From positions 3,086,501-3,150,500 of the forward strand of contig JAOTOL010001662.1 of NCBI GenBank assembly GCA_034440575.1: a stretch of 64,000 nt of DNA, in the 5' to 3' direction. Each line of letters opens with the position of its first letter. Positions within the stretch are counted from its first letter, which is position 1. The notes beneath the pieces are model-generated. The model ran no database searches and was not told the origin of the DNA. It worked only from the letters and a program-made list of their open reading frames with translations. This stretch comes from Imbricaverruca yamaguchii. Lineage: Eukaryota > Arthropoda > Thecostraca > Neoverrucidae. Shown here piece by piece: positions 3,592 through 63,297 of the stretch. The position numbers were made by a program, and so were the translations under genes.

Positions 3592-3640
3592 GGGCGCAAA
3601 ATGACCATAGATGTCGACGCGCCCCTAAACTCCAACACAC
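3592..3640 (+). repeat. LINE 3'-terminal hairpin
   Basis: The segment gggcgcaaaatgaccatag then a loop and cgacgcgcccctaaac can fold on the gggcgc/gcgccc arms. The same pattern, with ATGACC after the left arm and CCCAAATAACCAAC after the right arm, recurs at 27.6, 39.7, 47.0, 48.0, 48.1, 49.3, 55.5, 56.9 and 63.2 kb. In non-LTR elements a 3' RNA structure is commonly what the element's own reverse transcriptase recognises; that role here is inference. Confidence 0.8.
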
Positions 3641-4610
3641 CACTTAATGAGAATGAAAATAGCGGCCAGAATGGCCATTGTTTCAGCAGAGTAGATGGAG
3701 AAGTTATCCGGTAGACGTTTGGAAAGTCTGAGACCTGGCCCAGTGATGCCGATGCCTACCTTAGCCTCGTGTTTGGACCCATCCGTGAATATGAGTGATT
3801 TGTGATTGTTGTCATCGGCGAACTTGTGAAAGAGGCCTAGAATATCCGCCGATGTGATAGTGGCTTTCTTCTCCGAGAGCAAATACTCGACCTTTGGTTG
3901 ACTGAAAGTCCAGAAGGGCCTAGTGGGCGGTCGAGCTGCAGTGGATGGCATTGCGAGGTTAAGATCTGAGAGAGCCGTGGGAATTTGAATGCTATATGGT
4001 GGAAGTTTGCGCGCAAATCGGCTCTTGTCGTATCTGCCAGGCATGAAGCAGCGCTGTGCCGGATGATTTGGAATGGATTTGATTTTGATGTGGTAACGGT
4101 ACAGGTGCTGTGTCCTCCTGTGGTGGAGTGATGGTGTGTTTAAGTCTACTAGAAGACTAGCTATCGGTGTAGCGCTAAGGGCGCCTGTGGCTGCTCTGAT
4201 GCAGCTGTTTTGGATGACTTCTAATTTTTTACTCTGACTTTCTGAAATTGTGGAAAAAATGATGCTGTTGTATTCTATGATGGGTCGTATGATTGATGTG
4301 TACAGTCGCAGAAGTGTTTTCCTGTCTCCGCCCCAGTCTGTGCCTGCAAGTGCACGTATTATGTTGACGCGCTTCGCGCTTCGCTTCGTGATGTCGGTGA
4401 TATGGGTGTTGAAACTGAGTTTTTCGTCTAAATACACCCCTAGGAATTTGAAACTTTTCACCTGCTCGAAGGCTTTGCTATCGATCTTAAGTAACGTTGG
4501 GGCACACTTCCCCAGTGCCCATTTTAATCTCCCCTGTCGTACCGTAGGTGGTTTTCGTCTGCGTTGGTTTCGTGGTGTTTGACAGTTTGCGGCGCGTGCT
4601 TTTCGTTCAA
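3641..4610 (-). mobile_element. LINE fragment, RT thumb to RNase H
   Basis: The minus-strand frame shows FLGVYLDEKLSFNTHI and LRLYTSIIRPIIEYNS of the LINE thumb region, then the start of RNase H (LIFTDGSKHEAKVGIGITG, YSAETMAILAAIF). The catalytic RT core is missing upstream, so the copy is 5'-truncated near 4,560-4,610. RNase H stops abruptly at about 3,641, exactly where the plus-strand LINE ends. The missing C-terminus is probably displaced to the left of the window by that insertion. Same broad RNase H-bearing class as the first element, but a different family by sequence. Confidence 0.85.
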
Positions 4611-4782
4611 TCCAAACCGATTGAAGAGGATCAATTTTGTTCTTAACGTGATACTGATGTAGAATGCGGCACACGGATTAATAAATATGGGCGGGGAACG
4701 TTTTGCACCTGCATCATCAGCATCTGTGCGACCAACGGATCGACTCCGTTGATACATACAGCAGTCTACCGTTTCTCCCATA

Positions 4783-5046
4783 ATAAAGACATAAAGACAT
4801 AAAGGCATAAAAGATTAGTGCAACTATGAGCCACAAGGGCTCTTCTTGGTTGCACTCTGTACACTGAACCAGTTGCCCACCCAAATCTGTCAATCAGCCC
4901 TCCCTGTAATACTGAAAGGCAAGCCCTCTATTCTTATAATGATTGTCTATGCTGTATAAGATGTTCAATGTGCTGCTACTGGCAATGTTTTCTGGCAGCT
5001 GGTTCCAGTGTTCTACTACCCTGTTGGTGAAGAAAGTCTGCCTTTG
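4783..5046 (-). mobile_element. 3' end of a CR1/L2-type LINE
   Basis: The minus strand translates to QTFFTNRVVEHWNQLPENI followed by about 30 codons and a stop near 4,909. This is the hallmark C-terminus of CR1/L2 polymerases (FFxNRVVxxWNxLP). Downstream, at plus 4783-4813, are 8-bp repeats of the type ataaagac, the short 3' repeats characteristic of CR1-like elements. The copy is strongly 5'-truncated; its upstream border lies next to a 23-bp palindrome at 5054-5076. Confidence 0.75.
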
Positions 5047-8000
5047 AGCTCATCAAAATGAGCTGAGCTCATTTTGACCTGTTATTGCCCTAATAGATAC
5101 AACCCCTACCCGACTACCAGCCGGAGCTCAGCTCGATCAGTGTTGCTATGCGCTCACGGGCCGGTAGTCTAGCTCTCCACCCGAGTACTTGTCCGGCCGA
5201 CCAGCGACAGAGCGGGTGACCGCAAAGTGAAACCGCTTTATGATCGGTTTACTGGCCGCATGCGGCGCGCCAGATGGGCTCGTCGCTCACCAGTATGACG
5301 CAACTGGCTGCACGCTGGCCCCGCACGCGTCCGCTTCCGGCCTGAAATGTGGACAAAAAGGCGAAAATGGCGCGTAACTCCTGATTTGAGCATTTTGTGT
5401 GCGATCATATTCCCTGCATTTTGCCGCCGTTGATTGATATTTCAATCTCGCGTTATCGTGTCTGCGCAGGCTGGGATAACGCGAAAGGGAGAGAATGGGA
5501 GGGACCCGTTTCCGGGGCCATCTTTTGACATCCAAACGCGTGGGAAGTTATGACTTAGATGTGTATCTGCTCAGCGCCAACTTCGACGTGATCGTCAACA
5601 TGGGTCTATGTGCAGTTTCACACACTTCTTGCGCCCACCAAAACACGGTCAATCACCATATCTAAGCACGATGTGCTTGCTAGCATGCATAGGAAGTTAT
5701 TTTCAGGAAGTTATTCTTACTCATCGTTTAGCGTTTTGGTCATTTGAAAAACAAGTGGGAAAGGGTGCCCATAATATAATGGAGGCCGGTGGAAATGCAT
5801 TCATAGTGTGACATCAGTCTCAGTCGCACCGTCTCACATTGTGAAAACCCACGGGTTAAAGCAGCGGGACCGTTCCGAAGCTTAGCACAGGTACGCACTA
5901 ACGCATGCGATGCTTTATCTATCGTCATAGGCTCGAGACACACTCGACTATCGATCACACGCGTGCCAAAGGAGCCGGTGGTGTCACCTTCGTCGACCAC
6001 TGCAGCTGGCGGGGACCTGACAAATTGCAGGCAATCGCTCCTTCAGCTCCGGCTGACGCGTACAACTAACGTAACGAGCTTCGTTTCACGCGGCATAAAT
6101 CTCGCCGCTGAGTGGAAGAGCCCCAGCCTCCCTAGCGCCACGCGATGTCCCGTCGTCCGCGTCGATGACCCTCGGATGCTCCGACACTTGTTCAAGGTCA
6201 TCGCACAGCATCCGCTACAGGATATACTCGGAGTAGAGGAGGAGAGAGGGGAGACATCATGGCGGTAAAATCCCTTGGATTGGTGGATTCCCGGAGACAG
6301 AACCATGGGCGCAGTTAGCGAAGGGGAGGTGTGACTTTCCCACACTCATCTATCGGCGGAGCCATGTCTGAATGGAGGGAGACTGGACTGGAACAAATAT
6401 CGCAACCCTGACTGGAAAGGGCGCACCTCAATCAATTCAAATTTTCAGACGAAGGTCCCCTTTGAGTGCCAAAGGCTTTACCAAGGGGGATCCGAGTGCG
6501 CCTCCCTTTACAATCTTCCTAGCCAGAGGCGCCCCTGCGGGGAAATGTTATCACCATGAAAATTGTTCACCCCACTTTCCCTGTCGCCTCTTAGTAGGCC
6601 ACATTCCCAGGGTTAGTTCAGTTTAGGGTTACATCAATTGCATTGCGTCATGCAACCAAGGCCAATTACCGCTCATTCTGTGTGCATGAGGTCAGGCGCC
6701 GTGCAGCTTCATCCAATTCCCGTCCAGTCCGCACCAATGTATTGGATCTATCGATGGCGCATTGACCCGCAGGCTGACCAGCACATTAGCCCAACCCGTA
6801 AAGTCTTGGCCGGTTGACGTTCATTGCTACGCTGCTCCACATCGGCACCGTCCAACGCATGTGGAGCACGTCCCCAAGCCCCACTATTCCACGCAAATTG
6901 TCGTCGACAATTTGCCGGGCCGACAGCTGATCCAAGTAGAGTCCCGACAGATAGATCCAAGTAGATCCCGACAGGGATGTAGAGGGGTTGCGACCTCGTG
7001 GAGGTGGAGGGGAGGGGCGCTTCGCGCGGCGCTCGTGGGTCGATGCTGCCATCTGTCGGGCCGGCGCGGCGGAGCGCTGTCCCTCTTCCGACAGCCGTGA
7101 AGAGGTGTGGCTGTCTTAGGAACAGGAGCCGGTGCCAAACACGGGTCTGACGGCGCGCTGCGGGGAACAGGTCGCCGGTGGGCGCGCGACAGTTCACTGG
7201 CAGGTGGCAGAGGTGCTGCAGCGAGCGGCATGCCAATATAATTCTGTACTTATTGCAAACTTTAACAGCAAGCACGTCGCAGACGCGTAATGGCCACCCG
7301 CATTGCGTAACGCCTATTAGGCACCCTAATAATCCGCCGGGTGTGTGGTTTGCTTTATGAAATGACTGATGGAAGGTGTGCATGCAGAAACACAGTGAAC
7401 AAATTTTTTTTTTTCGTGTGCGCGCCTATTGCGTGGTGATGGTCCACGCATATTTTATTCAAATCGAACGATGGGAAATAGTGCCCTTGACCTCGGAGGC
7501 GGAATATTTACCGATAAAAGCGCGGGCGGTGCGGTAGGTCTGCTAATGAGTACCTCAAATCAACATACAAATCGCGGTTGGCTGTGTGCTTACAACACGC
7601 GTGCTCCTGGAGAGTTATTTTCCGATAACGGACACTGATTGGTCCGCCGGATGACTGAGGTTAGTTGGATTTTCAACAGAAAAACCCGCACCCATTGTCG
7701 ACCTCCAGTTGTACTACGCCAGGCGCTACCAACTTAACTTGAGATTGGACCAGTTCTGGAGCTAAATCTGTACAAATCATTGAAACGAAATTGATAACTT
7801 TCATTTCGGCTCGGAGCCTCTTCATTGGTTCAGGGACTTACTCTACTACCGGCGAGGCCCTGTGTCAATCCGGGTGCATTTCATCAACCCGAAACCCATC
7901 CGTCCGCCCAGACCCTTCAATTTTCCCCGACCTGAGAACCGCAGCCTCTGTCCGCGGACACTCTCCGCCAACTCGGGGGTCCTGTTCATCGGCCCGGCAC

Positions 8001-8516
8001 TGTTTGCATCAGCCGGATGCCCTTTTAACTGGCCAGGGGTCTCTCACATCTACCCACCAGGTTCACCTCACATCGACCCAGGGACCCTTTCCGCCAGCCT
8101 TTGGCCCCATCAAGCCTATCAAGCTCTCAGGAGATCTCCAACTCACGAGGACTAACAGATGTCAAGTGTGGTAGGGGTCTCACCAGGTCTCAAGGGGCCC
8201 ATTTGTTCTCACTGGCTCCCCCAGCCCCCGAGGCATCTTTGTTCGTGCTCAAAAATAGAAATTAACTAACGGTCGATGGTCGCATTATGTATTTTCATCG
8301 AAAAATATCGCCCGAACTGTCATTTTTTACGTTTCCCCTCTGGAATGGGATCTTTCCGACGCTATGAGATAGAACGTGCCCCTTGACCCTTGCGTGCGCC
8401 TGTGCTTGGCCGACGGAGGGAGCCCAAGCCCATGCTCAAAGCCCACAAACGCGCTGCGCTGCAAACTATCTCGATGCCACAAACCACACGAAGACTAACA
8501 CAAAGTATGGTACGAT
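5047..8516. other. Anonymous DNA, no gene recognised
   Basis: Open frames here are short, overlap on both strands and show no domain I recognise. A perfect palindrome lies at 5054-5076 (arms caaaatgagct, one-base centre). GC rises around 6.7-7.2 kb. A short direct repeat (agatccaagtagatcccgac-like) occurs near 6,950. The upstream exon of the klingon-like gene, with start codon and signal peptide, could lie here but I could not identify it. Confidence 0.5.
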
Positions 8517-8517
8517 G

Positions 8518-8661
8518 CTAGCTGCAGTACGGCCCAGACATGTTCGGAGCGCACCCTAGCTCCATCTCATGGCCAACGCAAAAAATCAGGGACATGGGAA
8601 CTAATGTGCAGGGGCACCACACTCTGGACCCCTGGATAGATCCTGGATCCGCCACTGTCAC
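8518..8661 (-). mobile_element. Possible hAT-type non-autonomous element end
   Basis: On the minus strand, reading from 8661, the sequence starts CAGTGGCGGATCCAGGATC. A CAGKGGCGGATCCAGG terminus is common in hAT-family elements. A related end (CAGGGGCGGATCCAGGAG) begins at about 62,839 on the minus strand. The partner terminus and 8-bp target duplication were not identified, so this rests on one end only. Confidence 0.35.
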
Positions 8662-8786
8662 AAACTGCATCTGAGTCCCTGCGAGGATCCTCATAAGCCA
8701 CTTACACCGATAGTCCGTGCAACATAGACTGCATGAATGGCATAGCACAGACGGCTATGATGCTGAGGACGTGGTCAGCCCTCTGA

Positions 8787-9385
8787 TCATGGCAATGCTG
8801 CAGTGGTAGCAGCAGTCTCCTGATCATGGCAGGGTTGCAGTACAGCAGCGGCCTGCTGACCATGGTAGTGCTGCAGTGGTAGCAGCGGCCTGCTGACCAT
8901 GGTTGTGCTGCAGTGGTAGCAGCGGCCTGCTGACCATGGTAGTGCTGCAGTGGTAGCAGCGGCCTGCTGACCATGGTAGTGCTGCAGTGGTAGCAGCGGC
9001 CTGCTGACCATTGTAGTGCTGCAGTGTAGCAGCGGCCTGCTGATCATGGCAGTACTGCAGTGTAGCCACGGCCTGCTGACCATGACAGTGCTGCAGTGGT
9101 AGCAGCGGCCTGCTGACCATGACAGTGCTGCAGTGGTAGCAGCGGCCTGCTGACCATTGTAGTGCTGCAGTGGTAGCAGCGGCCTGCTGATCATGGCAGT
9201 GCTGCAGTGTAGCCACGGCCTGCTGATCATGGCAGTGCTGCAGTGTAGCCACGGCCTGCTGATCATGGCAGTGCTGCAGTGTAGCCGCGACCTGCTGATC
9301 ATGGCAGTGCTGCAGTGCAGCCGCGGCCTGCTGATCATGGCAGTGCTGCAGTGCAGCCGCGGCCTGCTGATCATGGTAGTGCTGC
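8787..9385. repeat. Minisatellite, 36/37-bp unit, about 16 copies
   Basis: Units of the type gtgctgcagtggtagcagcg then gcctgctgaccatggta repeat head to tail. The left half has 37-bp units with gtggtagcagcgg; the right half has mainly 36-bp units with gtgtagccrcgg and gatcatggca. Mixed unit length rotates the reading frame, and stop-poor units keep several frames open on both strands. I do not consider these frames genes. Confidence 0.95.
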
Positions 9386-9894
9386 AGTCGTCAGCCGGCG
9401 GTGGCTTTGTGGATATGATTGTGCTGCGCACGCACGCTACATGCACACCGATTACCGAAATCGTGTCATACAAATGTTGTGAAGCGCGTGTACGACACTG
9501 AACAGTATGACGTAGTGGTTGCATCAACCCAACCGCGCTGCCGGCGCGGGCACGTGATGTCCTGCTGGCCACGGCCGCAGCTAATTAACACGCGATCTAC
9601 ACGCTATTCGCACCAGCTCAGTTCAGCGTGTTGCGAGATAATCTGATGGAAACAATAGAGTGGCGGCGGCTGGTCGCAGCACGAGACACGCGCCTCTCGG
9701 GGCCGGGCCAGACCAGGTCAGACAGTGCGCCGGAATAGCCGCAGCGGGCACTGATCGGCGTGTAGGTGGCTGCGTTTGTTGACAGAGGGAACGGCCGGGT
9801 ATAATGCACCCGATACCGAGGGTAATGCACCTTGCAGTCGAGTGTAATATACCCCGATGAAGCATGCAATATATGTACCAAAGGTTTGACATAA
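9386..9894. other. No gene recognised
   Basis: Short overlapping frames only, without recognisable domains, between two tandem arrays. Confidence 0.5.
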
Positions 9895-10140
9895 CCCAGA
9901 CCAGGGACTACGTATGCCAGGAGGATGCGACCTACCCGGGGCGGTTATGCTGTACCCGGTACGAGGGACTATGTACGCCAGGAGGATACGACGTATCCGG
10001 GGACGGTTTTGACGTACCCGGTACACGGGACTGTGTACGCCAGGAGGATGCAGGATCATCGGTGGTCGATTTTGATGTACCCCGGGACTATGTGTAATGC
10101 ACGCAAACTGGGTTTTGATGTATCAGTGACTTGGTGTAAT
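9895..10140. repeat. Degenerate minisatellite, about 62-bp unit
   Basis: The block ccaggaggat recurs at 9917, 9978 and 10040 (spacing 61-62 bp). Each copy is followed by tacccggggacgg-like and gtacccggtac motifs and then gggactatgtacg. Further decayed copies (cccgggactatgtgtaatgc) run to about 10,140. Confidence 0.75.
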
Positions 10141-13375: not shown

Positions 13376-13891
13376 GATTTACGAGCCAGTTGTCCGGATG
13401 CCGCCGACGCGTGTCGGCAGTTGCCTCGAGGTCTCCCACGTCACCGCGGTCGGCGCGAACGAGCCTTGCCGTGCCTAATGATTCTGATTGGACGACCGGC
13501 AAAAACCTGTTTGTCGTCTGCTCGCCGCTGATCACATCGCTCGCGCCGCTGAGGGGTCGCTTCGTTAGACGGTCCGCGGCGTCCGCCGGCGGCCGGCACA
13601 CAAAAACGGCGCTCCCACATCCGCTCGGGAGACAGTGAGATGAGGTGGCGTGATGATCGTGCTGCAGGTTTACCACAGAGGTGCATATAGACGTGAGGCT
13701 TCACTCGGCTTGGACGATATGCAGAATGGTAGACGTTGTGGTGGAAGGGCCGGCGCCTATGTTGTAATTTGTAATGCTCATGTTGGTGAAACCATTTATT
13801 GTCAGTCGATGCGTCGTAAAGCCCAAATAAATGACTAATTACCAACAATTTATTCCAACTTACAAAGTAAATGCCGGTCATATAGGTGCAA

Positions 13892-13893
<2 letters not shown>
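13376..13893. other. No gene recognised
   Basis: Flank of the 41-bp array with short frames on both strands and no domain I recognise. Confidence 0.5.

Positions 13894-13966
<73 letters not shown>
13894..13966. repeat. (AT)n microsatellite
   Basis: An uninterrupted alternating AT run of about 73 bp, ending in cacatatgtataca. Confidence 0.98.
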
Positions 13967-13973
<7 letters not shown>

Positions 13974-15496: not shown

Positions 15497-15500
15497 TGAT

Positions 15501-18371: not shown

Positions 18372-18451
18372 TGATGAGACATAGCCTGAGCATTGCGTAG
18401 TTGGGTATAACGTATGATGCACAGCTACCAAAGTCCGTGTTTCACCAGGAG

Positions 18452-27124: not shown

Positions 27125-27644
27125 CTAAGCGCTACAGTTGACATGTCTTGAAAAGTGGACTTGGTCCTACTGCAGAACGAGGCGAGACGAGGTCGTGCTC
27201 TGCCGCCTTCTGCTTGAGCGCTTACCCAACACACCGCCATCTGCTCTGTGGGGAGGACAGACCAAACTGCCCCCGATGTCGTGCACCGCTGTCAGTGCGT
27301 CACGTTTTGATTTCATGCCGCCTGCTCGCCGATGCTCGCAGACGCCTTTTTGGAGTCGGGCGGTCGCTGTCACTCCGCGATCTCCTGGGATGATCATTCG
27401 CGAACGGTAACTTCAGGACAGCTTTTTCGCTTTCTTTCAGATGTCGACTTTAGAGCAATCTATATATCTCACTGACATGTAACACTAGAAGATCGAAATG
27501 ACTTGCCGGTATTCTGCAGTTTCGTGTAGTACTGTTGGACCGTTTAAGACCATCGATACCATGTAGCATTGTTATGGGCGCTGTATGACCATCGCAATCG
27601 ATACGCCCCTAAGCCCAAATAACCAACCTAAGCGTTACAGTTGA
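27125..27644 (+). mobile_element. 5'-truncated RNase H-class LINE with 17-bp target duplication
   Basis: The inserted sequence, about 27,142-27,627, encodes the C-terminal tail of the same class of LINE as the one at 1-3,640: TRRDEVVLCRL, then after a frameshift near 27,225 CGEDRPNCPRCRAPLSVRHV with the CX2CX7HX4C knuckle. The 3' UTR carries the gggcgc...acgcccc hairpin (27,576-27,609) and ends cccaaataaccaac. It is flanked by ctaagcgctacagttga (27,125-27,141) and ctaagcgttacagttga (27,628-27,644), one mismatch in 17. This fixes the element's 3' end. Confidence 0.9.
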
Positions 27645-39633: not shown

Positions 39634-39717
39634 TGGATATATCTTATTTATTGATTATTTGGGCTTAAGGGCGCGTGGACTACTAAGGTCATTTTGCGCC
39701 CATGGATATATCTTATT
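39634..39717 (-). mobile_element. Solo LINE-tail hairpin insertion with 15-bp target duplication
   Basis: The 54-bp insert 39,649-39,702 reads on the minus strand tgggcgcaaaatgaccttag, then a loop, cgcgcccttaagcccaaata and a short tail. It is flanked by perfect 15-bp direct repeats tggatatatcttatt (39,634-39,648 and 39,703-39,717). The insert consists only of the hairpin and tail that end the LINEs at 3.6 and 27.6 kb. Confidence 0.8.
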
Positions 39718-46998: not shown

Positions 46999-47181
46999 CT
47001 GACCAGGTTGTTGGTTATTGGTTTTACGACACATCGACCGTTCAGTCATGTAGCGTCACCAATCTCTCACTCCGATTGGCCGCAGGCGAAGAGCAGCGAC
47101 AGGTGAGACTCGAACCCACAATCTTTCGATTGTGAGACGGGCAACTTTCCCCTAGACTACTAGTCCCCTGTCTGACCAGGT
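46999..47181 (-). mobile_element. tRNA-derived SINE (family B) with LINE-type hairpin tail
   Basis: Minus strand, about 47,009-47,171. The tRNA-like head has an A-box-like tagtctagggga and a B box gggttcgagtc. A short body follows, and then a 3' tail gacgctacatgactgaacgg...gatgtgtcgtaaaaccaataaccaac. That tail matches the LINE hairpin pattern (CGC..ATGAC...GATGCGCCC.AAA.CCAATAACCAAC). The direct repeat ctgaccaggt flanks it at 46,999-47,008 and 47,172-47,181. The head is not a working tRNA gene: the anticodon arm spacing is wrong and the acceptor ends do not pair. Confidence 0.78.
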
Positions 47182-47973: not shown

Positions 47974-48055
47974 GAGGCTACAAGCTGGTTGGCTATTGGG
48001 GTTTATGGGCGCATGGACTGCGTTAGTCGTGCATCGCCCAGGAGGCTACGAGTTG
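47974..48055 (-). mobile_element. Solo hairpin insertion, 54 bp
   Basis: The insert 47,988-48,041 reads on the minus strand ctgggcgatgcacgactaac, then cagtccatgcgcccataaac and cccaatagccaac. Flanks are gaggctacaagctg and gaggctacgagttg (two mismatches in 14). The surrounding repeat-like DNA makes the flank match a little less decisive. Confidence 0.65.
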
Positions 48056-48082: not shown

Positions 48083-48186
48083 AGTCACATGAAGTTAGTT
48101 ATTAGTGTTTTAGTTAGTCACATGAAGGTTATTATTAGGGGTTTTGGGCGCATCAACTGCATTGGTAATACAGAGGTCACATGAAT
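48083..48186 (-). mobile_element. Two hairpin-tail insertions at one target, tripled target site
   Basis: The target gtcacatgaa occurs three times, at 48,084-48,093, 48,117-48,126 and 48,176-48,185. Between the first two is a 21-26-bp piece (ttagttattagtgttttagt) resembling only the outer tail. Between the last two is about 49 bp with ggggttttgggcgcatcaac, the tail plus most of the hairpin. This looks like two separate insertions into the same site. Confidence 0.6.
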
Positions 48187-48189
48187 GTT

Positions 48190-48923: not shown

Positions 48924-49051
48924 GCAAACCCACACTGGTAGAGGTCAGCTCAGATCCAAACGGCAAACAGGCGCACACCTACACCTTACACTGGAAGGTG
49001 GAGAGCTACGCACCAATCGAAGAGTACAACGTCATCTACGAGGCAACCGAG
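48924..49051 (+). CDS. klg: Klingon-like protein, exon G (FN3 first half)
   Basis: Phase 1 in after gtctgtccggcag|, phase 0 out at accgag|gtgagt. Joined to exon F it reads IELTGKPTLVEVSSDPNG, then HTYTLHWKVESYAPIEEYNV with the fibronectin III core tryptophan, and IYEATE. Together with exon H it forms the single FN3 domain after three Ig domains, the feature that separates the Klingon/Wrapper layout from lachesin-like proteins (Ig only). Confidence 0.92.
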
Positions 49052-49281
49052 GTGAGTGCTGAATGCGCCCGACGAGGTATGTGTCGACGATAGAGCGTCC
49101 CCTCAGAGCCAGCAATACCAGCCGTGTGTGTCTCGCACAACGTCTCCCGCCGATACCAGCCGAGCCGACTCATGAGACGGGGATCCGCGCACACCCGACA
49201 TGGTCATCACCATGGATTGTCATCGCTCATAGCATGGTCATCGACATAGACACGCTCATCTATTCGCTCCAAATCAACGAA

Positions 49282-49351
49282 CTGTACCATAGCTGCATGA
49301 CCTCTGCAGTCGATGCGCCCATACACCCCAATAACCCGACCTGTACCACGG
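49282..49351 (+). mobile_element. Solo hairpin insertion, decayed, about 48 bp
   Basis: Plus-oriented: ctgcatgacctctgcagtcg, then atgcgcccatacaccccaat and aacccgac, between ctgtaccatag and ctgtaccacgg. The left arm of the hairpin (gctgc instead of gggcgc) has decayed. Located 230 bp inside intron G-H. Confidence 0.55.
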
Positions 49352-54182: not shown

Positions 54183-54399
54183 GTGAACAGTACAGGTGCC
54201 GTCAAGCCGCGGCGGTGGGAGGAGGTTGTGATTCCGGATCCGTCGACAGATGACACCAACAGCGTCATGTACGGCAATATGTACACGGCGAGCAACCTGC
54301 GGTCCGCCACGGTGTACCAAGCCACCGTGACAGCCAAGAACAAGTACGGGTGGAGCGAGAAGCCCGCGAAGCCCTTCGAGTTCGCCACACTTGGCGCGA
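54183..54399 (+). CDS. klg: Klingon-like protein, exon H (FN3 second half)
   Basis: Phase 0 in, phase 1 out (ggcgcga|gtgagt). It joins exon G as YEATE|VNSTGAVK, creating an N-glycosylation sequon (NST) in the FN3 domain. It then encodes RWEEVVIPDP, SNLRSATVYQATVTAKNKYG (the FN3 F-G strands with the tyrosine corner L..ATxYxxxVxAxNxxG) and WSEKPAKPFEFATLGA. Confidence 0.93.
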
Positions 54400-54756
54400 G
54401 TGAGTTGACGACGACGCGATGGGTTGGGACACTGGTCGGCGAACTCGCGAGGAGGCGGTGGGAAGTTGGGATATGGCTCGCGGGGACCCGGCCTATTGTT
54501 TGTTTATTTGGCGGTTCACGATGTACAATATGCACATTCACGGCTAAAGACACTGCTCACACTTTCGAGTGGGCCGCGGGATTGGTAAATGTCCCGAGTT
54601 GTGTGAGTGTTGAACCCGGGACCTAGAGCACAACACCTTAACAACTTGGCCATCCCTGCCCCAAAGAGGCGGTGGGACGCTGGGAGACGGACTCGCGGGA
54701 CGAAGATGGGACGCATGGAAGTGGCTCGCTGGGAGGCGGTAGAACTATGGGAGACA
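54400..54756. repeat. Decayed gaggcggtgggacgctggga repeats interrupted by a SINE
   Basis: Units like gaggcggtgggaagttggga and gaggcggtgggacgctggga occur on both sides of the SINE at 54,492-54,661 and continue into the duplicated segment to about 54,960. Confidence 0.7.
54492..54661 (-). mobile_element. tRNA-derived SINE (family A)
   Basis: Read on the minus strand: ggggcagggatggccaagtt then gttaagg (A-box region), later cccgggttcaacactc (B box), a body with gggacatttaccaatcccgc, and a tail ccgccaaataaacaaacaat. Same order as the copies at 23.2 and 61.0 kb. The target duplication is obscured by the surrounding tandem repeat. Confidence 0.8.
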
Positions 54757-56152
54757 GACTCGCAGGGCGAAGGGACACTGGGAGGTGGTTCACAGAGATA
54801 CGGTGGGATGCTTGAAGACAGTCTCACTGGACGAAGGTGAGACGCTGGGAGGTTGTTCGCGAGGATGTGGTGGGACGTTTGGAGGTGGCCCGTGGGGCGG
54901 CGGCGGGACGCTGGGAGGTGGCGATGGGACGTTGGGAGGTGGTTCGTGGGGAGGCGGTAGTGCCGCTGGCAGTTCACGCAGAGATTCAGTGCGTTCTGCT
55001 ATCTTCTGCTAGTGTCATGGTTGTCGCACGTGTGTTGTTTCTCTCTGTAGACGTAAGGTATGTGTTGTTAGCACACTTTGTAGTAGCACGGTATGTTGGC
55101 ACACTTTGTATATACACGGCATGTACTAGCACACGTTGTGGGCACACGCTATGTGCTGGCACACTTTGTAGGCGCACGGTACGTATTAGCACCCTTTGTA
55201 TGCGCACGGTATGTGTTAACACACTTTGTATGAGCACCACGTGCAATAGCACACTTTGTATGCGCACGGTATGTGTTAACACACTTTGTATGAGCACCAC
55301 GTGCAATAGCACACTTTGTAGGCGCATGATGTGCTGGCACACTTCATCAACACAGGTCACACCACAGCACCGGTCTCAGCTTCAGATTAACGTCCTACAG
55401 GTTATGCTTGTGCACACCAGTCAGGGTGTTAGTACGGTAATGATCTCCACCACGAGGAGGAATGGATGCATTCAATCTAACTCTTCTCAGAGTTAACACT
55501 ACGCCTGTGGGCGCCTATTTGAATGCTAACTCATGGGGCTTTTGGACGCATCAACTACGTTGTTCATGGAGCGATACTAATTCATGATCACTAATGTTGA
55601 TCATATGCTTATATATCGGCACTAACCTAACGTATGCATTGCACAGTGAATCATTGATACCAGTGCCGACTCCTATTTAGCTGAGATGGACATGTATAGA
55701 TGTGACGACTGGTGGAAACCACCCACCCCAGAACGGTGGGTCTCGAAACAAATGCCGCCAGATGCGGGTACCAAATAGCGACAGGGACTGTGTGGCGACT
55801 GGCCAGGCATACGTGCGTACACCGGTATCGACCGGGAGAGAGTGGCTTTTTGGATGCCACCGACTTCTTGGAAAACTACAACACTTCCATGGAATGGCGG
55901 TGTTGTGATCCATGGACCTCAAGGTGGCCATTGCCGTCCTACGCCGTCCAACTCTGAAAGTTTCAGTGCACACACGCGTAGGCACATTCACCAAGCTATC
56001 GAACCATCAGGTCAAGGCAAACTACTAAGCCAAACCGAAACCCATACCAATCGGCGACGCACACAGACCTACAGAATTACTGGCATCACACAACTACTGC
56101 TCGTTTACCACGCCCCTTGCCGTGCGGGGGCAACACAAGACGCGACTGGAGT
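54757..56152. repeat. 1,396-bp tandem duplication, copy 1
   Basis: Every block of this segment recurs 1,396 bp further on, from gactcgcagggcgaagggac to caagacgcgactggagtg. The only difference I noticed is a G run of five here versus four in copy 2, near the end. It contains a ggtggttcgyggggaggcgg repeat, a short tandem repeat of cacactttgtaggcgcacgg type (about 55,040-55,350) and a decayed hairpin insertion at 55,536. Confidence 0.95.
55526..55586 (-). mobile_element. Solo hairpin insertion, decayed (duplicated copy at 56,922-56,982)
   Basis: The minus strand reads cgctccatgaacaacgtagt, then tgatgcgtccaaaagcccca. Flanks are ctaactcatg and ctaattcatg. The same insertion is present in the second copy of the 1,396-bp duplication, so it predates that duplication. 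Confidence 0.5.
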
Positions 56153-57548
56153 GACTCGCAGGGCGAAGGGACACTGGGAGGTGGTTCACAGAGATACGGT
56201 GGGATGCTTGAAGACAGTCTCACTGGACGAAGGTGAGACGCTGGGAGGTTGTTCGCGAGGATGTGGTGGGACGTTTGGAGGTGGCCCGTGGGGCGGCGGC
56301 GGGACGCTGGGAGGTGGCGATGGGACGTTGGGAGGTGGTTCGTGGGGAGGCGGTAGTGCCGCTGGCAGTTCACGCAGAGATTCAGTGCGTTCTGCTATCT
56401 TCTGCTAGTGTCATGGTTGTCGCACGTGTGTTGTTTCTCTCTGTAGACGTAAGGTATGTGTTGTTAGCACACTTTGTAGTAGCACGGTATGTTGGCACAC
56501 TTTGTATATACACGGCATGTACTAGCACACGTTGTGGGCACACGCTATGTGCTGGCACACTTTGTAGGCGCACGGTACGTATTAGCACCCTTTGTATGCG
56601 CACGGTATGTGTTAACACACTTTGTATGAGCACCACGTGCAATAGCACACTTTGTATGCGCACGGTATGTGTTAACACACTTTGTATGAGCACCACGTGC
56701 AATAGCACACTTTGTAGGCGCATGATGTGCTGGCACACTTCATCAACACAGGTCACACCACAGCACCGGTCTCAGCTTCAGATTAACGTCCTACAGGTTA
56801 TGCTTGTGCACACCAGTCAGGGTGTTAGTACGGTAATGATCTCCACCACGAGGAGGAATGGATGCATTCAATCTAACTCTTCTCAGAGTTAACACTACGC
56901 CTGTGGGCGCCTATTTGAATGCTAACTCATGGGGCTTTTGGACGCATCAACTACGTTGTTCATGGAGCGATACTAATTCATGATCACTAATGTTGATCAT
57001 ATGCTTATATATCGGCACTAACCTAACGTATGCATTGCACAGTGAATCATTGATACCAGTGCCGACTCCTATTTAGCTGAGATGGACATGTATAGATGTG
57101 ACGACTGGTGGAAACCACCCACCCCAGAACGGTGGGTCTCGAAACAAATGCCGCCAGATGCGGGTACCAAATAGCGACAGGGACTGTGTGGCGACTGGCC
57201 AGGCATACGTGCGTACACCGGTATCGACCGGGAGAGAGTGGCTTTTTGGATGCCACCGACTTCTTGGAAAACTACAACACTTCCATGGAATGGCGGTGTT
57301 GTGATCCATGGACCTCAAGGTGGCCATTGCCGTCCTACGCCGTCCAACTCTGAAAGTTTCAGTGCACACACGCGTAGGCACATTCACCAAGCTATCGAAC
57401 CATCAGGTCAAGGCAAACTACTAAGCCAAACCGAAACCCATACCAATCGGCGACGCACACAGACCTACAGAATTACTGGCATCACACAACTACTGCTCGT
57501 TTACCACGCCCCTTGCCGTGCGGGGCAACACAAGACGCGACTGGAGTG
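56153..57548. repeat. 1,396-bp tandem duplication, copy 2
   Basis: Near-identical direct repeat of the preceding segment. It ends about 40 bp before the 30-nt exon I of the klingon-like gene. Confidence 0.95.
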
Positions 57549-57587
57549 GCACGACATGGCTGACGGCCGCGCACCCAAACTTTTCAG

Positions 57588-57617
57588 ATGACTCGGCTGC
57601 CGACCTGAGGGGAGGAG
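57588..57617 (+). CDS. klg: Klingon-like protein, 30-nt micro-exon I (linker)
   Basis: A candidate exon between cacccaaacttttcag| and gaggag|gtaagg. Its 30 nt fit phase 1 in and phase 1 out, as needed between exons H and J. It would read N-DSAADLRGG-G, adding an acidic Ser/Gly-rich linker and an NDS sequon between the FN3 domain and the hydrophobic tail. Because H and J are also phase-compatible without it, it could be optional, or a chance match. Confidence 0.5.
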
Positions 57618-58875
57618 GTAAGGCCGCACGTGGGACGTGTGTGTGGGGTTGCGACCTGGTGGTGTCATCACAGTTACACGGCGGCGGCCGAGTTGCTGCG
57701 AGTTTAACAGACTGGCGTGGCCTGACCCATCCGCCGGCGCTTCACTGGGACGTGGAGCTCGTGGCGACGCGCGCCCTCGCTTCATGCCGGCTCGCCAGGG
57801 ATTTCCTGTATGTCGACTAACATGCACGAGTGTGAACTTGGTTTGAAGTGTGAGGGCACGTTCTCGTTTTGTCCAGCTAAACTGGCATGCATCTGGTACG
57901 ATTCGACGGCTCACTGAAGTAAAACTTTTTGAACACGTCAGAACCGCCGACACACCACCCTCGAGGCATGAGCAATTTGGCACACACCTCGAATGAAGAC
58001 AGACCGGAATAGGAGGGGAAAAGTTGAGGCCCTTGGTACCGCAAAACGAGCGACCTTCAACGTGGCTCCGCCTTTGCTTTGCCACTCTGAAAATCGCATT
58101 TCCTCCTTCTCCCACCCGTTTTTAATACTATTGTTGACTAAAATTTAATACGATTTAATAAGATGGCACTCCGGACTGTACCCATGTTGGGTGTCCACGG
58201 CGATGTATTCAGACTTCTATACGTGCGTACATAAGGCGACACACACATAACGTTGCTATTTAGGGAGATCGCTTCTTAACGCATCTAGCTGGGTGGTGAT
58301 ACGGGTTGCTTCTACACGGCAACATGCAGCTGGCACCGCTCCGGTGTCGCCGTCAGGACTGTGTCAGTACGGGTGACTGCTCGCCGGACCCACGGACGTT
58401 CTGGTTGTCTCGGTGACGGCGGCACGAGACCCGTGACGGGACCTTGGCAACAGCTGATCGGGGGTCACCTGTAACCGACTGCGGTCAGATCAGCTGTCGC
58501 GGCTCGCGTCCCACGCTCTGCATGCCGGCGTAGTCGAGGTGCACGTGACTGGTTCATGACGTGACTGCCCTCCGGCGAAGACCATCACTCATCTCCATCG
58601 GAGTCGGTCAAGCAGCGGGCCAATACACGCGAGGCGTTTGCCTCGCCCTGGTCCCGAGAGTGTGTTGAGTGGCTACGCCTCGAGCCTGGTTAGTCGCGCG
58701 CTAACGTGGGGCTGCCACCCCTGAGTGTCGAGCGTAAACGCACATCCGTTCAAAGCCGTTCTCCTGCAAGCTGCATTTCAGTTTCTAGTGGCGCCAAGGG
58801 TTCGAACCGCACCATGGCGCTCAGCCGGAGGGCGACACCCGCCTCCGACTTCTCACCCGGCCGGTCTCGTTGCAG
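57618..58875. other. Last intron of the klingon-like gene
   Basis: No second gene recognised. It ends in a good pyrimidine-rich acceptor, ggccggtctcgttgcag, at 58,875. Confidence 0.5.
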
Positions 58876-58973
58876 GAGTTTTGGGGCTGACGGACCCGAC
58901 CGGCTCCGCCGACCAGCGGACTGGCCTGCTAGCTTGTCTGGGGGCAATCCTCGCCCTGGCCATCGTATTGTGA
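58876..58973 (+). CDS. klg: Klingon-like protein, terminal exon J (GPI-anchor signal)
   Basis: Phase 1 in. It encodes VLGLTDPTGSADQRTG followed by LLACLGAILALAIVL and a stop at 58,971-58,973. The final ~16 hydrophobic residues, with no charged residues after them and a small-residue stretch (TGSAD) about ten residues upstream, fit a GPI transamidase signal. Klingon and Wrapper in Drosophila are GPI-linked, which supports the family call. The exon is recognised by this tail and by phase match, not by domain similarity. Confidence 0.8.
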
Positions 58974-60799
58974 GCTCTTCCGGGGCTGCCTTAGGTACGT
59001 GTCTTCCTCGGCCATGCCTTCACCTGATGGATATAATGGCTACATGTAATTTTTACTGGTGGCGGTGGTTGGCAATTTCATCGCATACTGTCCTTATCGG
59101 GGGTGGCTCAAACGAACTTGTGGGGATCATCTGCTGGGATCATCTCTGTCCGTGGCCGGAACTCAAGCCCCTATTCCGCAAATGTTCTGTAAATATGCGC
59201 CAGGTGTGCGGCGGGATGAAGTTATTAGCTGTTTTGCAAAGATATTCGAAGTTATTTGATATTGTGGTCTTCAGTCGATGTATCCAGAGCATGCCTATTC
59301 AGTCGTAACCCGAGCTGCAACTCCCGACGACATTTCTGCATTGCAGGTTACGTTTTCAACTTATGCTAGCGCACGCTTGAGTGAAAGTGTGACTTCGGGC
59401 CGGTGATATCGTGCGGCTTCGGCTTTGGTCGATCGCGGATGGCCGCGGTGGAGGTCGACAACACGGCGACACCGCGCACACAACGCGCCAGAGATCACGA
59501 CCCTTCACGATCGCGATCCGATGGAGGTCGTGACCCCGCGCTCGCGGCGCACCAGAGGTCACGACCCGGCGTCACCTAGTCCGGCCCGAGCAGAGGCCTG
59601 ACAGACACTGAAGCGTGTGGATTCCTCACCGAGCAGGAAACCAGAGCGAGCGGCGCGTGCGAGAGGAGGCTTTGCCGCGTGTGCCGGAAGAGGAAGCTCG
59701 GACTTTTGAACCTCAACACTCAGCCGCCCGCCCGGCTGTTCCCCATCCGTAGTGTTAGTGTGTGATCGAGCTGGCACATTCTGGTCGGCGATATCGTTCT
59801 CGCTGCTGGACGCCTAGCATGCAGCGAACGGGTTTTGGAGTATGCTGAGAAATGTGCGGACGCTTCGAGACGTGAGGGTGGTACACAGGTGTGCACGGGA
59901 GGGAAAGCTCCAACGCCGGCGATGGGAGGGGACATCGACAGCGAAGCGGTGGGAATCCGATACGGGGAGAGTGTCAGTCGGAATGGTGGATGCATCATGG
60001 CCGTAACAGTGTAAACCGATGCTGGCGGCGTTGCAGTTCACCCGCTCCGCATTCTGTCGTAGCTAGCGTCGCAGCTGGCGGTGTCGTAACCGGTGAGGTC
60101 AGTGGTGCAGTCGACCCAGGTCAGGTCACTGTCGCGGGTACCCAAATGAGGTCAGTAGCGAAGCTGACCTCCGTCGTAAGCCCGCCGTGAGGTTGGTGTC
60201 GCAGTTTACCGAGCGAGGTCAGCGGCGTAGTTGATCCCCACCGTGAGGTTGGTGTCGCAGTTGACCGAGCGAAGTCAGCAGCGCAGTCGACGCCGTCGTG
60301 GCCGGCCGACCAGTGTCGCAGCTGGTTTGACCTTGACCGGACGGGGAGGTTGGCGTCACACCCTGTCGTCAGTGTCGTTTGGCGCGCGCGCGCCGGTGAT
60401 ATGTGCCCAGCGACGCCCGACTGGTCCGCGACGCTTCTTGTGCACGTCTTCCGCTTTGTCCGCTCTGCTGCGGACTACGGCTGCGGGCGGGCCTCGGCTG
60501 CGAGTCTGCAGCTGCCGGGCCGGTGTTGCACAGTCATACCTGCCGGCCGGGGGCTCTGTACAGGTACGACCTATAGGCAGCTGGCCGTGCGACCTATAGG
60601 GAGCCGGCCGCCACGCTACGCACGGCGTGCAACCATCCGAGGAAACGCCGAACGATGTATTTAAGAGGCCGACAGGACGAAATTCGGATCGTTACGCAGC
60701 TTCTGTATGTTCCTCGTGTTCGCTTTAAACAATGTCGTATCTATGATTTTTGACTGAATACAAACTCTTGAGCTGTTGTACAGTGCGCTTGTCGTCCGC
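58974..60799. other. 3' flank of the klingon-like gene, no gene recognised
   Basis: Presumed 3' UTR and intergenic DNA. I saw no clear AATAAA close to the stop. A loose gaggtcagtggtgcagtcga-type repeat runs at about 60,085-60,300. Confidence 0.45.
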
Positions 60800-60961
60800 C
60801 TCAGGGAATGGTCGCCGCACGTGACAGTGAATGTGGACCGCCCAGGGAATGGTCGCCGCACGTGACAGTGGAAGTGGGTCGCCCAGGGAATGGTCGCCGC
60901 ATGTGACTCGTGACATGTGGCTCAGTCGGGGCACCAGCAGCAGCAGCAGCAGCAGCAGCAA
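60800..60961. repeat. 41-bp tandem repeat (3 copies) followed by (CAG)n
   Basis: cagggaatggtcgccgcacg recurs at 60,802, 60,843 and 60,884. From about 60,933 a run of nine CAG/AGC triplets follows, in non-coding sequence. Confidence 0.9.
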
Positions 60962-60981
60962 CTGGGTGCCAGGTCCCGGCA

Positions 60982-61182
60982 ACGCTTCACTTGCTTGTTT
61001 ATTGGTTGGTTCACGACACACTATGCACATTCACGGCTAATGGCGCCGCCCACACTGTTTCGCCGGTGGGCCGCGGGATTGGGAAATGTCCTGAGTGGCG
61101 CTAAAGTCGAACCTGGGACCTTTGGTACCCATAGCCCGACACCTTAACCACTCGGCCATCCCCGCCCCACGCTTCACTTGCT
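60982..61182 (-). mobile_element. tRNA-derived SINE (family A) with perfect 14-bp target duplication
   Basis: The insert is 60,996-61,168. On the minus strand the head has tggccgagtggttaagg, a textbook A box of the tRNA-Ser/Leu type, and aggttcgactt as B box. A body with ccactcaggacatttcccaa and a tail gtgaaccaaccaataaacaa follow. Perfect flanking repeats acgcttcacttgct lie at 60,982-60,995 and 61,169-61,182. The best-preserved SINE in the window. Confidence 0.9.
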
Positions 61183-61646
61183 GCTTCACACCAAGTCGCA
61201 TATGCTGCTATGAATTTCAACACAGCGCCAGATTCGGTACACGTAATAAAATAGCAAATAGGTGGGAAAATGACAACCAAAGATCACAGCACCGAGCCAA
61301 CCGAATTATCCCCAACATCAACCGTCACAAAGTGGATACACAATGACCCGGCATTCTCATCCGAAAGCAGCGGGCAGATACCACTGATAGTGTATGGCAC
61401 AGTGTATGGTAATATGGCACCAGATGCAAATGGTCATATATACCCTGGCAGTGTCGCATGGTAACCAGTGTCACCGCCAGGAGATATAGGAATAACTTCG
61501 CGTTAGGGCTCCACCTAAGGGCGCCAGCTCTCCAGACATGATTCATAACCGACAGCATCTCATAAGGCGGCTCCGACGTCCATCCGGCTCTCCATCACCG
61601 GACATCGAGTTATAACCTGTAGACAATGGCTGCTGTTGTTTACCGC

Positions 61647-61961
61647 TCAATGTACGTCTTCTGGCAGGACGACCTCACTAGGCGGCGGCACCTCCCCGTC
61701 GAGCTGCGCGCCGCTCGACGCGGGTACGGTCTCCGACAGCTCGTACTGGCGCGGCATGCTCCGCAGCAGCGCGTCCAGTCGCTGCAGCACCACCTCGTTG
61801 TCGCAGATGCACTGTTGGGGGCCGTACGGCGCCTCGATGCGCGCCACGCCGGCCACGGTCACGTGCTCGTCGGACACCTCCACCGGCAGACGGTGCAGCC
61901 GCAGCCAGCTGACCACGTGATCGCGGCGTGCCCACAGCCTGGCGGGCGGCAGCGACTCTGC
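61647..61961 (-). CDS. GEMIN6: Gemin6, last coding exon
   Basis: The minus strand opens after the acceptor ccctcacag (plus 61,962-61,970) in phase 0 and runs 104 codons to a stop at 61,647. It encodes SLPPARLWARRDHVVSWLRL, then HRLPVEVSDEHVTVAGVARI and EAPYGPQQCICDNEVVLQRL. The VAGV..I.(P/A)PYGP..C..xNEx(I/V)L pattern is the conserved C-terminal segment of Gemin6, which follows its Sm-fold domain. Gemin6 pairs with Gemin7 in the SMN complex that loads Sm rings on snRNAs. The tail after RSMP (SETVPASSGAQLDGEVPP) has no counterpart in the family that I recall. The exons for the Sm fold are not in the window. Confidence 0.85.
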   Translation of the reverse strand, partial: AESLPPARLWARRDHVVSWLRLHRLPVEVSDEHVTVAGVARIEAPYGPQQCICDNEVVLQRLDALLRSMPRQYELSETVPASSGAQLDGEVPPPSEVVLPEDVH

Positions 61962-61970
61962 CTGTGAGGG

Positions 61971-63208
61971 TTACAAGTCGGGTTAGGCCAATGCAAGGCT
62001 ACAGCTCACCACAGGTCAACAACACAAGAGGACAAGTATATCAGGTCGCTGAACATCACACAATGCACAGGTCGATGCAGGTCGCAACATCTATAATCAG
62101 ATCTGATATCTGATGGCGACAATGATGGCGTCATTCACTTATTTGGTTTTAATTCCAAAAAATGCCTAAAGCAATTAACAATTCGCCCAGAAACTAATTG
62201 TTGCGTAATTGGTGCACAAATTTCTGATATTCGAAGATGGGGAGTTCAGCGATGTACAGCTAATGGCAATTCCATCCGTGCATCGAAGGCTACCAAGTTG
62301 CTTCAAGCTGGACTCGCACGCAATGTTAAACAGGTGCGTATAATGGTAAGTGGTGTCATCATTTGTGCTATGTTGCAAACAATAGGAACTAAAAGCAGCA
62401 TTCCTCAGCCTCCCGAAGTTCGAAAGGGTCAGAAGATTGTTCAGTGATGCGACATTCTGAAGCCGTCCACCCACTGTTGCTTGTGGTACCACTTGCTATG
62501 ACCACCAAGTACGTAGCAGGAGCGTATATAGATGTTGACACTGGGGGCATGTGTCCCTCGCCCATGGAAAGGTCGTGTGGTAGTGTGTCCGGAAGAAAGT
62601 GCCACCAGGGAGAAGACTGTTGTATCACCTCTCCCGCGCACGGGATGTGTAGGCTAAAAGCGCCATTTTGAGAAAATGGCGCTTTTGGATTCAGTGCATG
62701 CATCAATGTCCCTACCCGCCTCGCTCAACGAATTTTCACCAGACACGTCCCTTCAGGGATCTCTGCAGTGGCACCCTTCCGACGGCATGGCGTCCCTTCA
62801 CACGAGTGTTTCCTCATGAAAACTCCTGGATCCGCCCCTGGCACGTGCCACTGCTAGACAAGTCGTCCGGCGTGGCGAGTGGTGGTGGGATGGAGGCCCT
62901 GACTCTCTCCATAACAGTGGAGGTTGTTTTGCATGGAACTTCAGGTTGAACTTCGTGCGGAGACCAATTATTGGTATTTTGGTCATCAGACAAGTTGGTT
63001 TTTGTTCGGGGAGGAGACGTGAAATATTCCAGAGAAGCCATCTATATCATTCAAGATCAACACATTGGTACAACATGTGGGATATGGGAATGAATTAAAT
63101 TACCCCCGATCACGCCTGTCCCTTCTAACTATTGCCCAGGGCATAGCTTCAGACTACAGCCAACTATAAATATGACATTTACGAAGATTCTATCGGTACA
63201 TGTACGAT
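61971..63208. other. Gemin6 intron with a possible hAT-like remnant
   Basis: No Sm-fold exon found on the minus strand. At 62,656-62,686 is a perfect hairpin, arms aaaagcgccatttt and a 3-nt loop. From about 62,839 leftwards the minus strand starts CAGGGGCGGATCCAGGAG, a hAT-like end. Blocks at 62,530-62,600 match 48,460-48,600 inverted. Confidence 0.45.
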
Positions 63209-63297
63209 GCAATGCCGTATGTTGGTTGGTTGGTTATTTGAGTTTTAGGGCGCATCCACCAGGTTTGGTCATTTAGCGCCCAGGCAATGCCGTATGT
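63209..63297 (-). mobile_element. Solo hairpin insertion with perfect 14-bp target duplication
   Basis: The 61-bp insert 63,223-63,283 reads on the minus strand ctgggcgctaaatgaccaaa, then a loop, ggatgcgccctaaaactcaa and ataaccaaccaacca. Perfect direct repeats gcaatgccgtatgt flank it at 63,209-63,222 and 63,284-63,297. The best-preserved example of the family. Confidence 0.88.

What the first reader, a model, noticed from the sequence alone, without database searches (positions are those of the whole stretch)
3592..63297. A 41-61-bp 'solo hairpin' retroelement family built only from a LINE 3' end
Seen: the pattern gggcgc-nnn-atgacc-loop-tgcgccc-taaa-cc-caaataaccaac ends two RNase H-class LINEs (3,592; 27,576) and one tRNA-SINE (47,009). 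It also occurs alone at 39,649, 47,988, 48,128, 49,293, 55,536 and 63,223, in both orientations. Direct repeats flank the solo copies: perfect 15 bp and 14 bp in the two best cases, about 10-14 bp with mismatches in the others. Three solo copies start at nearly the same base, the foot of the hairpin, which ordinary random 5' truncation would not give. Inference: either a folded RNA end stops or protects the template during target-primed reverse transcription, or there is a discrete minimal non-autonomous element far smaller than a SINE.
Basis: partly seen in the sequence, partly recalled or inferred. Interest (0 to 1): 0.85.

Follow-up and report, generated by a model that had tools for sequence, protein, structure and literature searches.

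The report
Tail-only retroelement copies in a barnacle
A barnacle genome carries many tiny inserts of about 55 to 65 bases that are just the folded tail of a longer jumping gene, and most of those read in full begin within a few bases of the same point, which suggests that the gene's RNA is trimmed down to that fold before it is copied into DNA.

Summary
The finding is real. The window lies in a 767-Mb assembly of a thoracican barnacle (COX1). Several LINE families there share a 3' hairpin plus a microsatellite tail. I read 80 copies chosen only by their tail (73 independent): 35 begin at the hairpin foot, 21 run on into a LINE, 6 begin inside the hairpin, 1 ends at -7 and 10 are unclear. The end is sharp: in 57 solo copies LINE-matching bases reach -1 in 49 and -2 in 34, and fall to chance at -3. 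One solo insertion has empty paralogous sites lacking exactly the 61-bp insert and one 16-bp target repeat. For the commonest hairpin, the LINE sequence next to the foot is present in only about 8% of exact copies. A SINE with the same fold shows no end at the foot (0 of 20), which disfavours simple drop-off by the reverse transcriptase. I favour template RNA that already ends at the foot: LINE mRNA trimmed by decay to a hairpin held by its reverse transcriptase. The solos look like by-products; self-propagation is not excluded. New variant of a known kind.

The parts
2..3534 (+). LINE coding region (family A-like tail), open at the window edge: endonuclease and start of reverse transcriptase (2-1606), rest of reverse transcriptase and RNase H (1567-3534)
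   Evidence: Pfam Exo_endo_phos_2 4e-24, RVT_1 1e-17, RNase_H 1e-10; best protein hits 48-50% identical, mostly without a name (120 of 1583 listed)
3590..3635 (+). 3' hairpin and tail of that LINE (GTTAT, then GGGCGC...)
27220..27390 (+). Remnant of the LINE C-terminal coding region, upstream of the tail at 27576
   Evidence: tblastn 48% over 58 aa, 5e-11
27574..27627 (+). LINE-linked 3' hairpin and tail
39649..39702 (-). Solo hairpin; target repeats 39634-39648 and 39703-39717
   Evidence: foot start
47010..47120 (-). 3' part of a tRNA-type SINE with a variant of the same hairpin (47010-47057); the upper limit is that of the part examined
   Evidence: tRNA type from a B box-like motif (recalled, by eye); ARAGORN calls no tRNA there
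47988..48041 (-). Solo hairpin; target repeats 47974-47987 and 48042-48055 (12 of 14)
48131..48175 (-). Short or decayed tail copy; target repeats 48117-48130 and 48176-48189 (13 of 14)
49290..49336 (+). Short or decayed tail copy; target repeats 49278-49289 and 49337-49348 (11 of 12)
55534..55573 (-). Short or decayed tail copy, weak target repeat
56930..56969 (-). The same insertion as 55534-55573, carried in a local duplication
13803..13830 (+).
63223..63283 (-). Solo hairpin, best copy; target repeats 63209-63222 and 63284-63297 (14 of 14)
   Evidence: folds at z = -3.2

Best explanation
The solo copies are products of target-primed reverse transcription made by RNase H-class LINEs that recognise a 3' tail, from RNA templates whose 5' end already lies at the foot of the 3' hairpin. 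Shown: real insertions with target duplications, an empty site, a preferred 5' end that is sharp to one or two bases and the same in families B, B2 and C, and a hairpin with some covariation support. Inferred: the reverse transcriptase holds the hairpin; the long LINE mRNA is degraded from its 5' side until the nuclease is blocked by the bound hairpin (or is cut there, at GUU^AU); the remnant of about 55-65 nt is still docked, is primed at its CTAA or CCAA repeats and copied to its end. The solos would be by-products of LINE RNA turnover, not genes of their own.
For: (1) Copies chosen by tail alone: 35 of 73 independent begin at the foot, 21 run into LINE, 6 begin inside, 1 ends at -7 (L069), 10 unclear (tally by eye, corrected: L082 is LINE-linked, L069 clear; 7 duplicates dropped). 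(2) Sharp end in 57 copies: T at -1 in 49, A at -2 in 34, T at -3 in 13, against 23, 23 and 24 of 25 LINE-linked copies. (3) 24 of 25 LINE-linked copies keep LINE homology for 160 nt or more upstream of the anchor, i.e. about 140 nt upstream of the foot, the limit of what was compared being 167-200; the other 97. (4) Target repeats: score 9 or more in 22/40 C and 15/20 B copies (duplicates included: 5 of the 15 are one insertion), against 0.5% and 5% of mismatched locus pairs. (5) Empty site: 10 paralogues split at the duplication, 3 at 90-91% identity unbroken; insert plus one repeat is exactly what these lack. (6) SINE with the same fold: 0 of 20 at the foot, against 23 foot to 7 LINE-linked in family C, whose tail ends alike; Fisher 2e-8. 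(7) The preferred end lies 5' of a helix; a polymerase coming from the 3' side would stall before a helix. (8) Family C solos and LINE copies share a loop variant (5 of 23, 3 of 7).
Against: No RNA data. The SINE comparison assumes that one reverse transcriptase serves both and that the SINE hairpin (other outer helix, no GTTAT before it) behaves alike; only 20 SINE copies were read. Family A gave only 2 foot copies against 11 LINE-linked (target repeats score 9 or more in 5 of 20), though it has the same GTTAT-hairpin. Ten of 73 copies could not be placed. Of the 6 ends inside the hairpin, 3 lie in predicted loops, 1 at a loop-closing pair and 2 within a helix, so cutting in loops is not established. 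Several copies have 3-13 extra bases between target repeat and foot. A sharp -1/-2 end could also come from a polymerase that lets go just after its anchor.
Confidence: 0.5

Rival explanations
1. Abortive reverse transcription: the LINE protein is anchored to the 3' hairpin and, once it has copied its own anchor, usually lets go, so the cDNA ends 1-2 nt past the hairpin whatever the template length.
For: A single sharp end one or two bases beyond the helix in several families; specific binding of a LINE protein to its 3' stem-loop is known for zebrafish ZfL2-2 (PMC4176376, passages seen).
Against: 0 of 20 SINE copies with the same fold end at the foot; at the C-family ratio the chance would be 2e-13, if one enzyme serves both. 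It does not explain the 6 of 73 ends inside the hairpin.
Confidence: 0.25
2. A discrete minimal non-autonomous element: solo copies inside host transcripts are cut out at the foot and copied again, so the 57-65-nt hairpin propagates itself without a promoter.
For: Solos far outnumber LINE-linked copies: 71 of roughly 850 exact AATGT-type hairpins and 3 of 44 exact AAAGT-type have the LINE GTTAT upstream. In family B, 8 of 10 foot copies have CTAC where the 3 LINE-linked copies have CAAC or CCAC.
Against: LINE-linked copies with CTAC and otherwise identical hairpins exist; family C solos share a loop variant with LINE copies. A source LINE is enough, and no promoter is recognised in 60 bp.
Confidence: 0.13
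3. A transcript starts at the hairpin foot from a promoter in the LINE 3' UTR, and this short RNA is the template.
For: Sharp 5' end in a motif (GTTAT) present at each base in 23-24 of 25 LINE-linked copies of families A, B, B2 and C.
Against: By eye nothing but GTTAT is shared upstream between families A, B and C; no promoter search was made.
Confidence: 0.06
4. Ordinary random 5' truncation of LINEs, with the peak an effect of how copies were chosen.
For: Some copies end inside the hairpin (6 of 73) or at -7 (1 of 73), as random truncation would also give.
Against: Copies were chosen by the tail only, yet 35 of 73 end within a few bases, while 24 of 25 LINE-linked ones run on for about 140 nt or more above the foot.
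Confidence: 0.02
5. The family spreads as DNA (MITE or segmental repeats).
For: Some copies are duplicated in larger repeats (7 dropped as duplicates; the L145 array).
Against: Different target repeats for independent copies, tails of varying repeat number, no terminal inverted repeats by eye; a precise empty site.
Confidence: 0.02

Closest known systems
Stringent-type LINE/SINE pairs with a shared 3' stem-loop (UnaL2, ZfL2; PMC4176376 and PMC5135761, passages seen)
   Same: LINE and SINE share a 3' stem-loop followed by short tandem repeats; the SINE copies keep the fold with two-sided changes at two pairs
   Different: Here the stem-loop plus tail alone is a very common inserted product, with a preferred 5' end at its foot
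5'-truncated LINE copies (recalled)
   Same: LINE 3' end, target duplications, loss of the 5' part
   Different: One preferred end position instead of a spread
Tailless retropseudogenes and truncated snRNA pseudogenes of mammals (PMC5322556, PMC4476161, passages seen)
   Same: Insert ends are set by the structure of the template RNA (there, in loops and single-stranded segments)
   Different: Those are 3'-truncated and made by L1; here the 5' side is missing and the 3' recognition hairpin is kept
U6-L2 chimeras of platypus (PMC4476161, passages seen)
   Same: Only a short L2 3' piece is present, so the enzyme leaves the L2 template early (my inference)
   Different: Those switch to a second RNA; no second RNA was recognised in the solo copies here, though a few have 3-13 extra bases
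R2 templates with a 5' ribozyme fold (PMC11331408, passages seen)
   Same: A stable RNA fold at the template 5' end is thought to protect it from decay
   Different: R2's fold is at the element's true 5' end and is an HDV-like ribozyme; here it is the 3' hairpin and no Rfam family matched

Membership tests
Product of LINE target-primed reverse transcription | Target-site duplication of variable length | tested here: met
   exact empty site
Product of LINE target-primed reverse transcription | 3' end formed by the element's tail with variable simple repeats | tested here: met
   (CCAA)n, (CTAA)n or (ATC)n tails of varying length, by eye
Stringent-type LINE/SINE tail pair | Shared 3' stem-loop with structure conserved | tested here: met
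   19 copies: 87.9% of cells paired against 32-48% when slid; G-C to C-G and G-C to A-U in SINE copies; but two of five measures do not exceed shuffles and one of ten pairs fails in 11 of 19 copies
Stringent-type LINE/SINE tail pair | LINE protein binds the stem-loop and needs it | not testable with these tools
   needs a binding or retrotransposition assay
SINE | Internal RNA polymerase III promoter (tRNA, 7SL or 5S head) | tested here: not met
   solo copies hold only hairpin and tail between the target repeats; no Rfam match. ARAGORN is silent too, but it also misses the SINE head, so this adds little
Random 5'-truncated LINE | Spread of 5' ends along the 3' UTR | tested here: not met
   35 of 73 at the foot; 24 of 25 LINE-linked copies run on about 140 nt or more above the foot
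MITE | Terminal inverted repeats and target duplication of fixed length | tested here: not met
   no terminal inverted repeats by eye; duplications vary, mostly 11-18 bp
Independent self-propagating mini-element | Lineages of solo copies not explained by LINE sources | tested here: inconclusive
   variant shared with LINE copies in C; B has only 3 LINE-linked copies to compare

The most novel reading that the evidence does not exclude
The hairpin-plus-tail is itself a minimal retroelement of about 57-65 nt: any transcript that carries a solo copy can be cut at GTT^AT at the hairpin foot and, docked on the LINE enzyme, be copied elsewhere, so that it multiplies without promoter, head or coding sequence. 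It would be smaller than any SINE I know of (recalled).
Probability: 0.13. Interest if true: 0.9.

Novelty: new variant of a known kind. Interest (0 to 1): 0.68.

Why it matters
If templates are trimmed to the enzyme-bound hairpin, these inserts are a genomic record of where the LINE protein sits on its RNA and of how that RNA decays in living animals. They would show that a fold plus tail of about 60 nt can be a complete retrotransposition substrate, and help to explain how SINEs arise, since any RNA that gains this tail could be mobile. A rough estimate of some 60,000 copies also makes them abundant insertion markers for barnacles, for which no comprehensive repeat library was available in 2022 (PMC8917513, passages seen).

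Tried and rejected
Rfam: no family matched the window at gathering threshold, nor 7 representative loci at E 0.5. I considered a self-cleaving hammerhead or HDV-type ribozyme at the foot: the core motifs (recalled) are not visible by eye. RNA folding: the two-helix hairpin is the predicted fold of most copies folded, but not of the LINE at 27576 (z = 0.2), of two of three B LINE copies or of the longer of two B2 strings; the SINE at 47057 folds little better than shuffles (z = -1.0). A lower stem is predicted in 4 of 5 C copies but not consistently elsewhere; not pursued. I first thought that ends inside the hairpin mark the loops; on recheck only 3 of 6 do, and I lowered the best explanation from 0.55 to 0.50 and raised drop-off from 0.22 to 0.25 for that. 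Literature: for tail-only LINE copies and for barnacle SINE/LINE work showed no description in the listings; one search was for ribozyme-processed elements. They cover open-licence PMC papers only and are phrase searches. This assembly has no relatives on offer, so orthologous empty sites could not be tested. Structure prediction was not used.

Rows dropped: 7 duplicates (L051, L086, L087, L095, L096, L102, L103) before the counts; one search was run before they were dropped. Classes are my reading; after L082 moves to LINE-linked and L069 to a clear end at -7, both from 'unclear'. The 25 LINE-linked copies include 5 B2 copies and not L082. B2 copies were chosen by the whole hairpin, so they cannot show ends inside it and are left out of the 73. 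Places were taken in contig order, from small contigs first; among the first 20 B2 copies 5 are LINE-linked, against about 8% genome-wide, so the foot share may be underestimated. 'Roughly 850' AATGT-type hairpins is 925 less 44 AAAGT-type and an estimate of other variants. L002-L008 were fetched and not studied.
Full report
What the window is. The window is G000:C1429:3086501-3150500 of a 767-Mb assembly in 1430 contigs. A COX1 on another contig reads through under the invertebrate mitochondrial code and is 97% identical to a cluster named for Leucolepas longa and 89-90% to three other barnacle entries. The organism is a thoracican barnacle; the species was not determined.

The observation. 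The LINE at 2-3534 has endonuclease, reverse transcriptase and RNase H domains. The LINE at 27576 is a remnant with 58 matching residues. Flanking direct repeats are present for the solos. In 264 kb (the window plus 20 stretches of 10 kb at fixed intervals on two contigs) a profile finds 32 tails, and none in one shuffled version. By eye these are 7 SINE, 3 LINE-linked and 22 solo or short copies, at least 3 of the 22 being duplicates of others. That extrapolates to about 93,000 tails and 64,000 solo or short copies, a rough figure from few stretches.

Families. Tails fall into families with different microsatellites and different LINE 3' UTRs: A (ATC repeats; 236 exact tails), B and B2 (CTAA repeats; 71 exact B tails; 925 exact B2-type hairpins) and C (CCAA repeats; 271 exact tails; 200 exact whole hairpins). 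LINE-linked copies of all of them have GTTAT directly before the hairpin GGGCGC...GCGCCC (23-24 of 25 at each base). A SINE has 1919 exact tails; I call it tRNA-type from a B box-like motif (recalled, by eye); ARAGORN calls no tRNA in the window copy.

The 5' ends. I took the first 40 C, 20 A and 20 B places in contig order, chosen by the tail only, and read 170-200 bases upstream. After dropping 7 duplicates, 35 of 73 begin at the foot, 21 continue into LINE sequence, 6 begin inside the hairpin, 1 has a clear end at -7 and 10 are unclear. By family, foot to LINE-linked: C 23 to 7, B 10 to 3, A 2 to 11. With 15 B2 solos added, 57 non-LINE copies keep an outer-helix start; 46 of them have a target repeat of score 8 or more ending near the foot, 42 of those within -4 to +2. 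Base by base, the match to the LINE ends at -1 or -2. Of 25 LINE-linked copies, 24 keep homology for 160 nt or more above the anchor, about 140 above the foot.

Target repeats and empty sites. Scores of 9 or more occur in 22 of 40 C and 15 of 20 B copies, but in 5 of 20 A and 1 of 20 SINE copies; the search reached 60 bases upstream, so longer elements are expected to fail. Mismatched pairs give 0.5-5% (duplicates included). For L093, ten paralogues carry the insertion and three at 90-91% identity match the joined flanks without a break, as do several more distant ones (40 of 61 candidates scored). The alignment of three filled and four empty copies shows that the empty ones lack exactly the 61-bp insert and one 16-bp repeat. 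Four B2 solos sit in minisatellites whose neighbouring units show the uninterrupted state (by eye).

Proportions genome-wide. Exact AATGT-type hairpins with GTTAT upstream number 71; their total is roughly 850, being 925 less 44 AAAGT-type and an estimate of others. For AAAGT it is 3 of 44. LINE-linked copies with a changed GTTAT are missed by this count.

Structure. Most single copies fold into an outer 6-bp helix, a 4/2 internal loop, an inner helix and a loop, with exceptions told under Tried and rejected. In 19 copies, 87.9% of pair cells are standard against 32-48% when slid. SINE copies change G-C to C-G and G-C to A-U in the outer helix. Two of five measures do not exceed the shuffles, and the innermost pair fails in 11 of 19 copies.

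The SINE control. Of 20 SINE copies chosen by their tail, none begins at the foot; about 15 run on into the tRNA-like part and about 5 are truncated in the body or unclear (by eye, 110 bases shown). Against 23 foot to 7 LINE-linked in family C, whose tail ends alike, Fisher gives 2e-8. This is the main argument against drop-off as a property of the enzyme on any such hairpin. It assumes that one enzyme serves both, and the SINE lacks the GTTAT.

Mechanism. The preferred end lies 5' of a helix, where a polymerase coming from the 3' side should no longer stall. Truncated pseudogenes made by L1 show that the structure of the template RNA can set insert ends (PMC4476161, PMC5322556, passages seen). 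I therefore think the template RNA itself ended there: LINE mRNA, unlike a short polymerase III transcript, goes through 5' decay (general knowledge), and an enzyme-bound hairpin could block it. Whether exonuclease trimming or a cut at GTT^AT is at work cannot be told from DNA. Ends inside the hairpin do not decide: 3 of 6 lie in predicted loops, 1 at a loop-closing pair, 2 in a helix. Extra bases between repeat and foot in several copies fit run-off ends but also other joining.

By-product or element. In family C, 5 of 23 foot copies and 3 of 7 LINE-linked copies share the CACACC loop, as expected if several LINE sources feed the solos. In family B, 8 of 10 foot copies have CTAC and the 3 LINE-linked copies do not, but LINE-linked copies with CTAC exist elsewhere. 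Self-propagation is open.

Comparison. The tail system resembles stringent-type LINE/SINE pairs. Tail-only copies with one preferred end as a main product were not seen described in the listings (open-licence papers). Passages of seven papers were read: PMC4176376, PMC5135761, PMC8917513, PMC11331408, PMC4476161, PMC5322556 and PMC11331182. The kind (a LINE-made retrocopy) is known, the form I have not found, hence 'new variant of a known kind'.

Noticed in passing
window 55069-56740: Local duplication with a shift of 1396 bases that carries the same tandem repeats and the same short tail insertion twice.
   Followed up: partly
window 3643-4506 (-): An antisense LINE protein fragment (30% identity over 290 residues) lies just after the tail of the LINE that ends at 3635.
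   Followed up: no
L109 (G000:C996:270910-272247): COX1 and COX2 frames under the invertebrate mitochondrial code on a contig much longer than a mitochondrial genome; nuclear insertion or misassembly not decided.
   Followed up: no
L133, L135, L145, L149: Solo hairpins inserted inside minisatellite arrays; in L145 the array holds two copies with the same tail, so array growth may also copy them.
   Followed up: partly
G000:C1255:193909, 195014, 196120: Three exact C hairpins spaced about 1.1 kb, probably a larger tandem repeat carrying one insertion.
   Followed up: no
L074: Two A-type tails in inverted orientation next to each other, with a long imperfect flanking repeat.
   Followed up: no
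G000, pattern: A SINE with 1919 exact 31-base tails, apparently young and abundant.
   Followed up: partly
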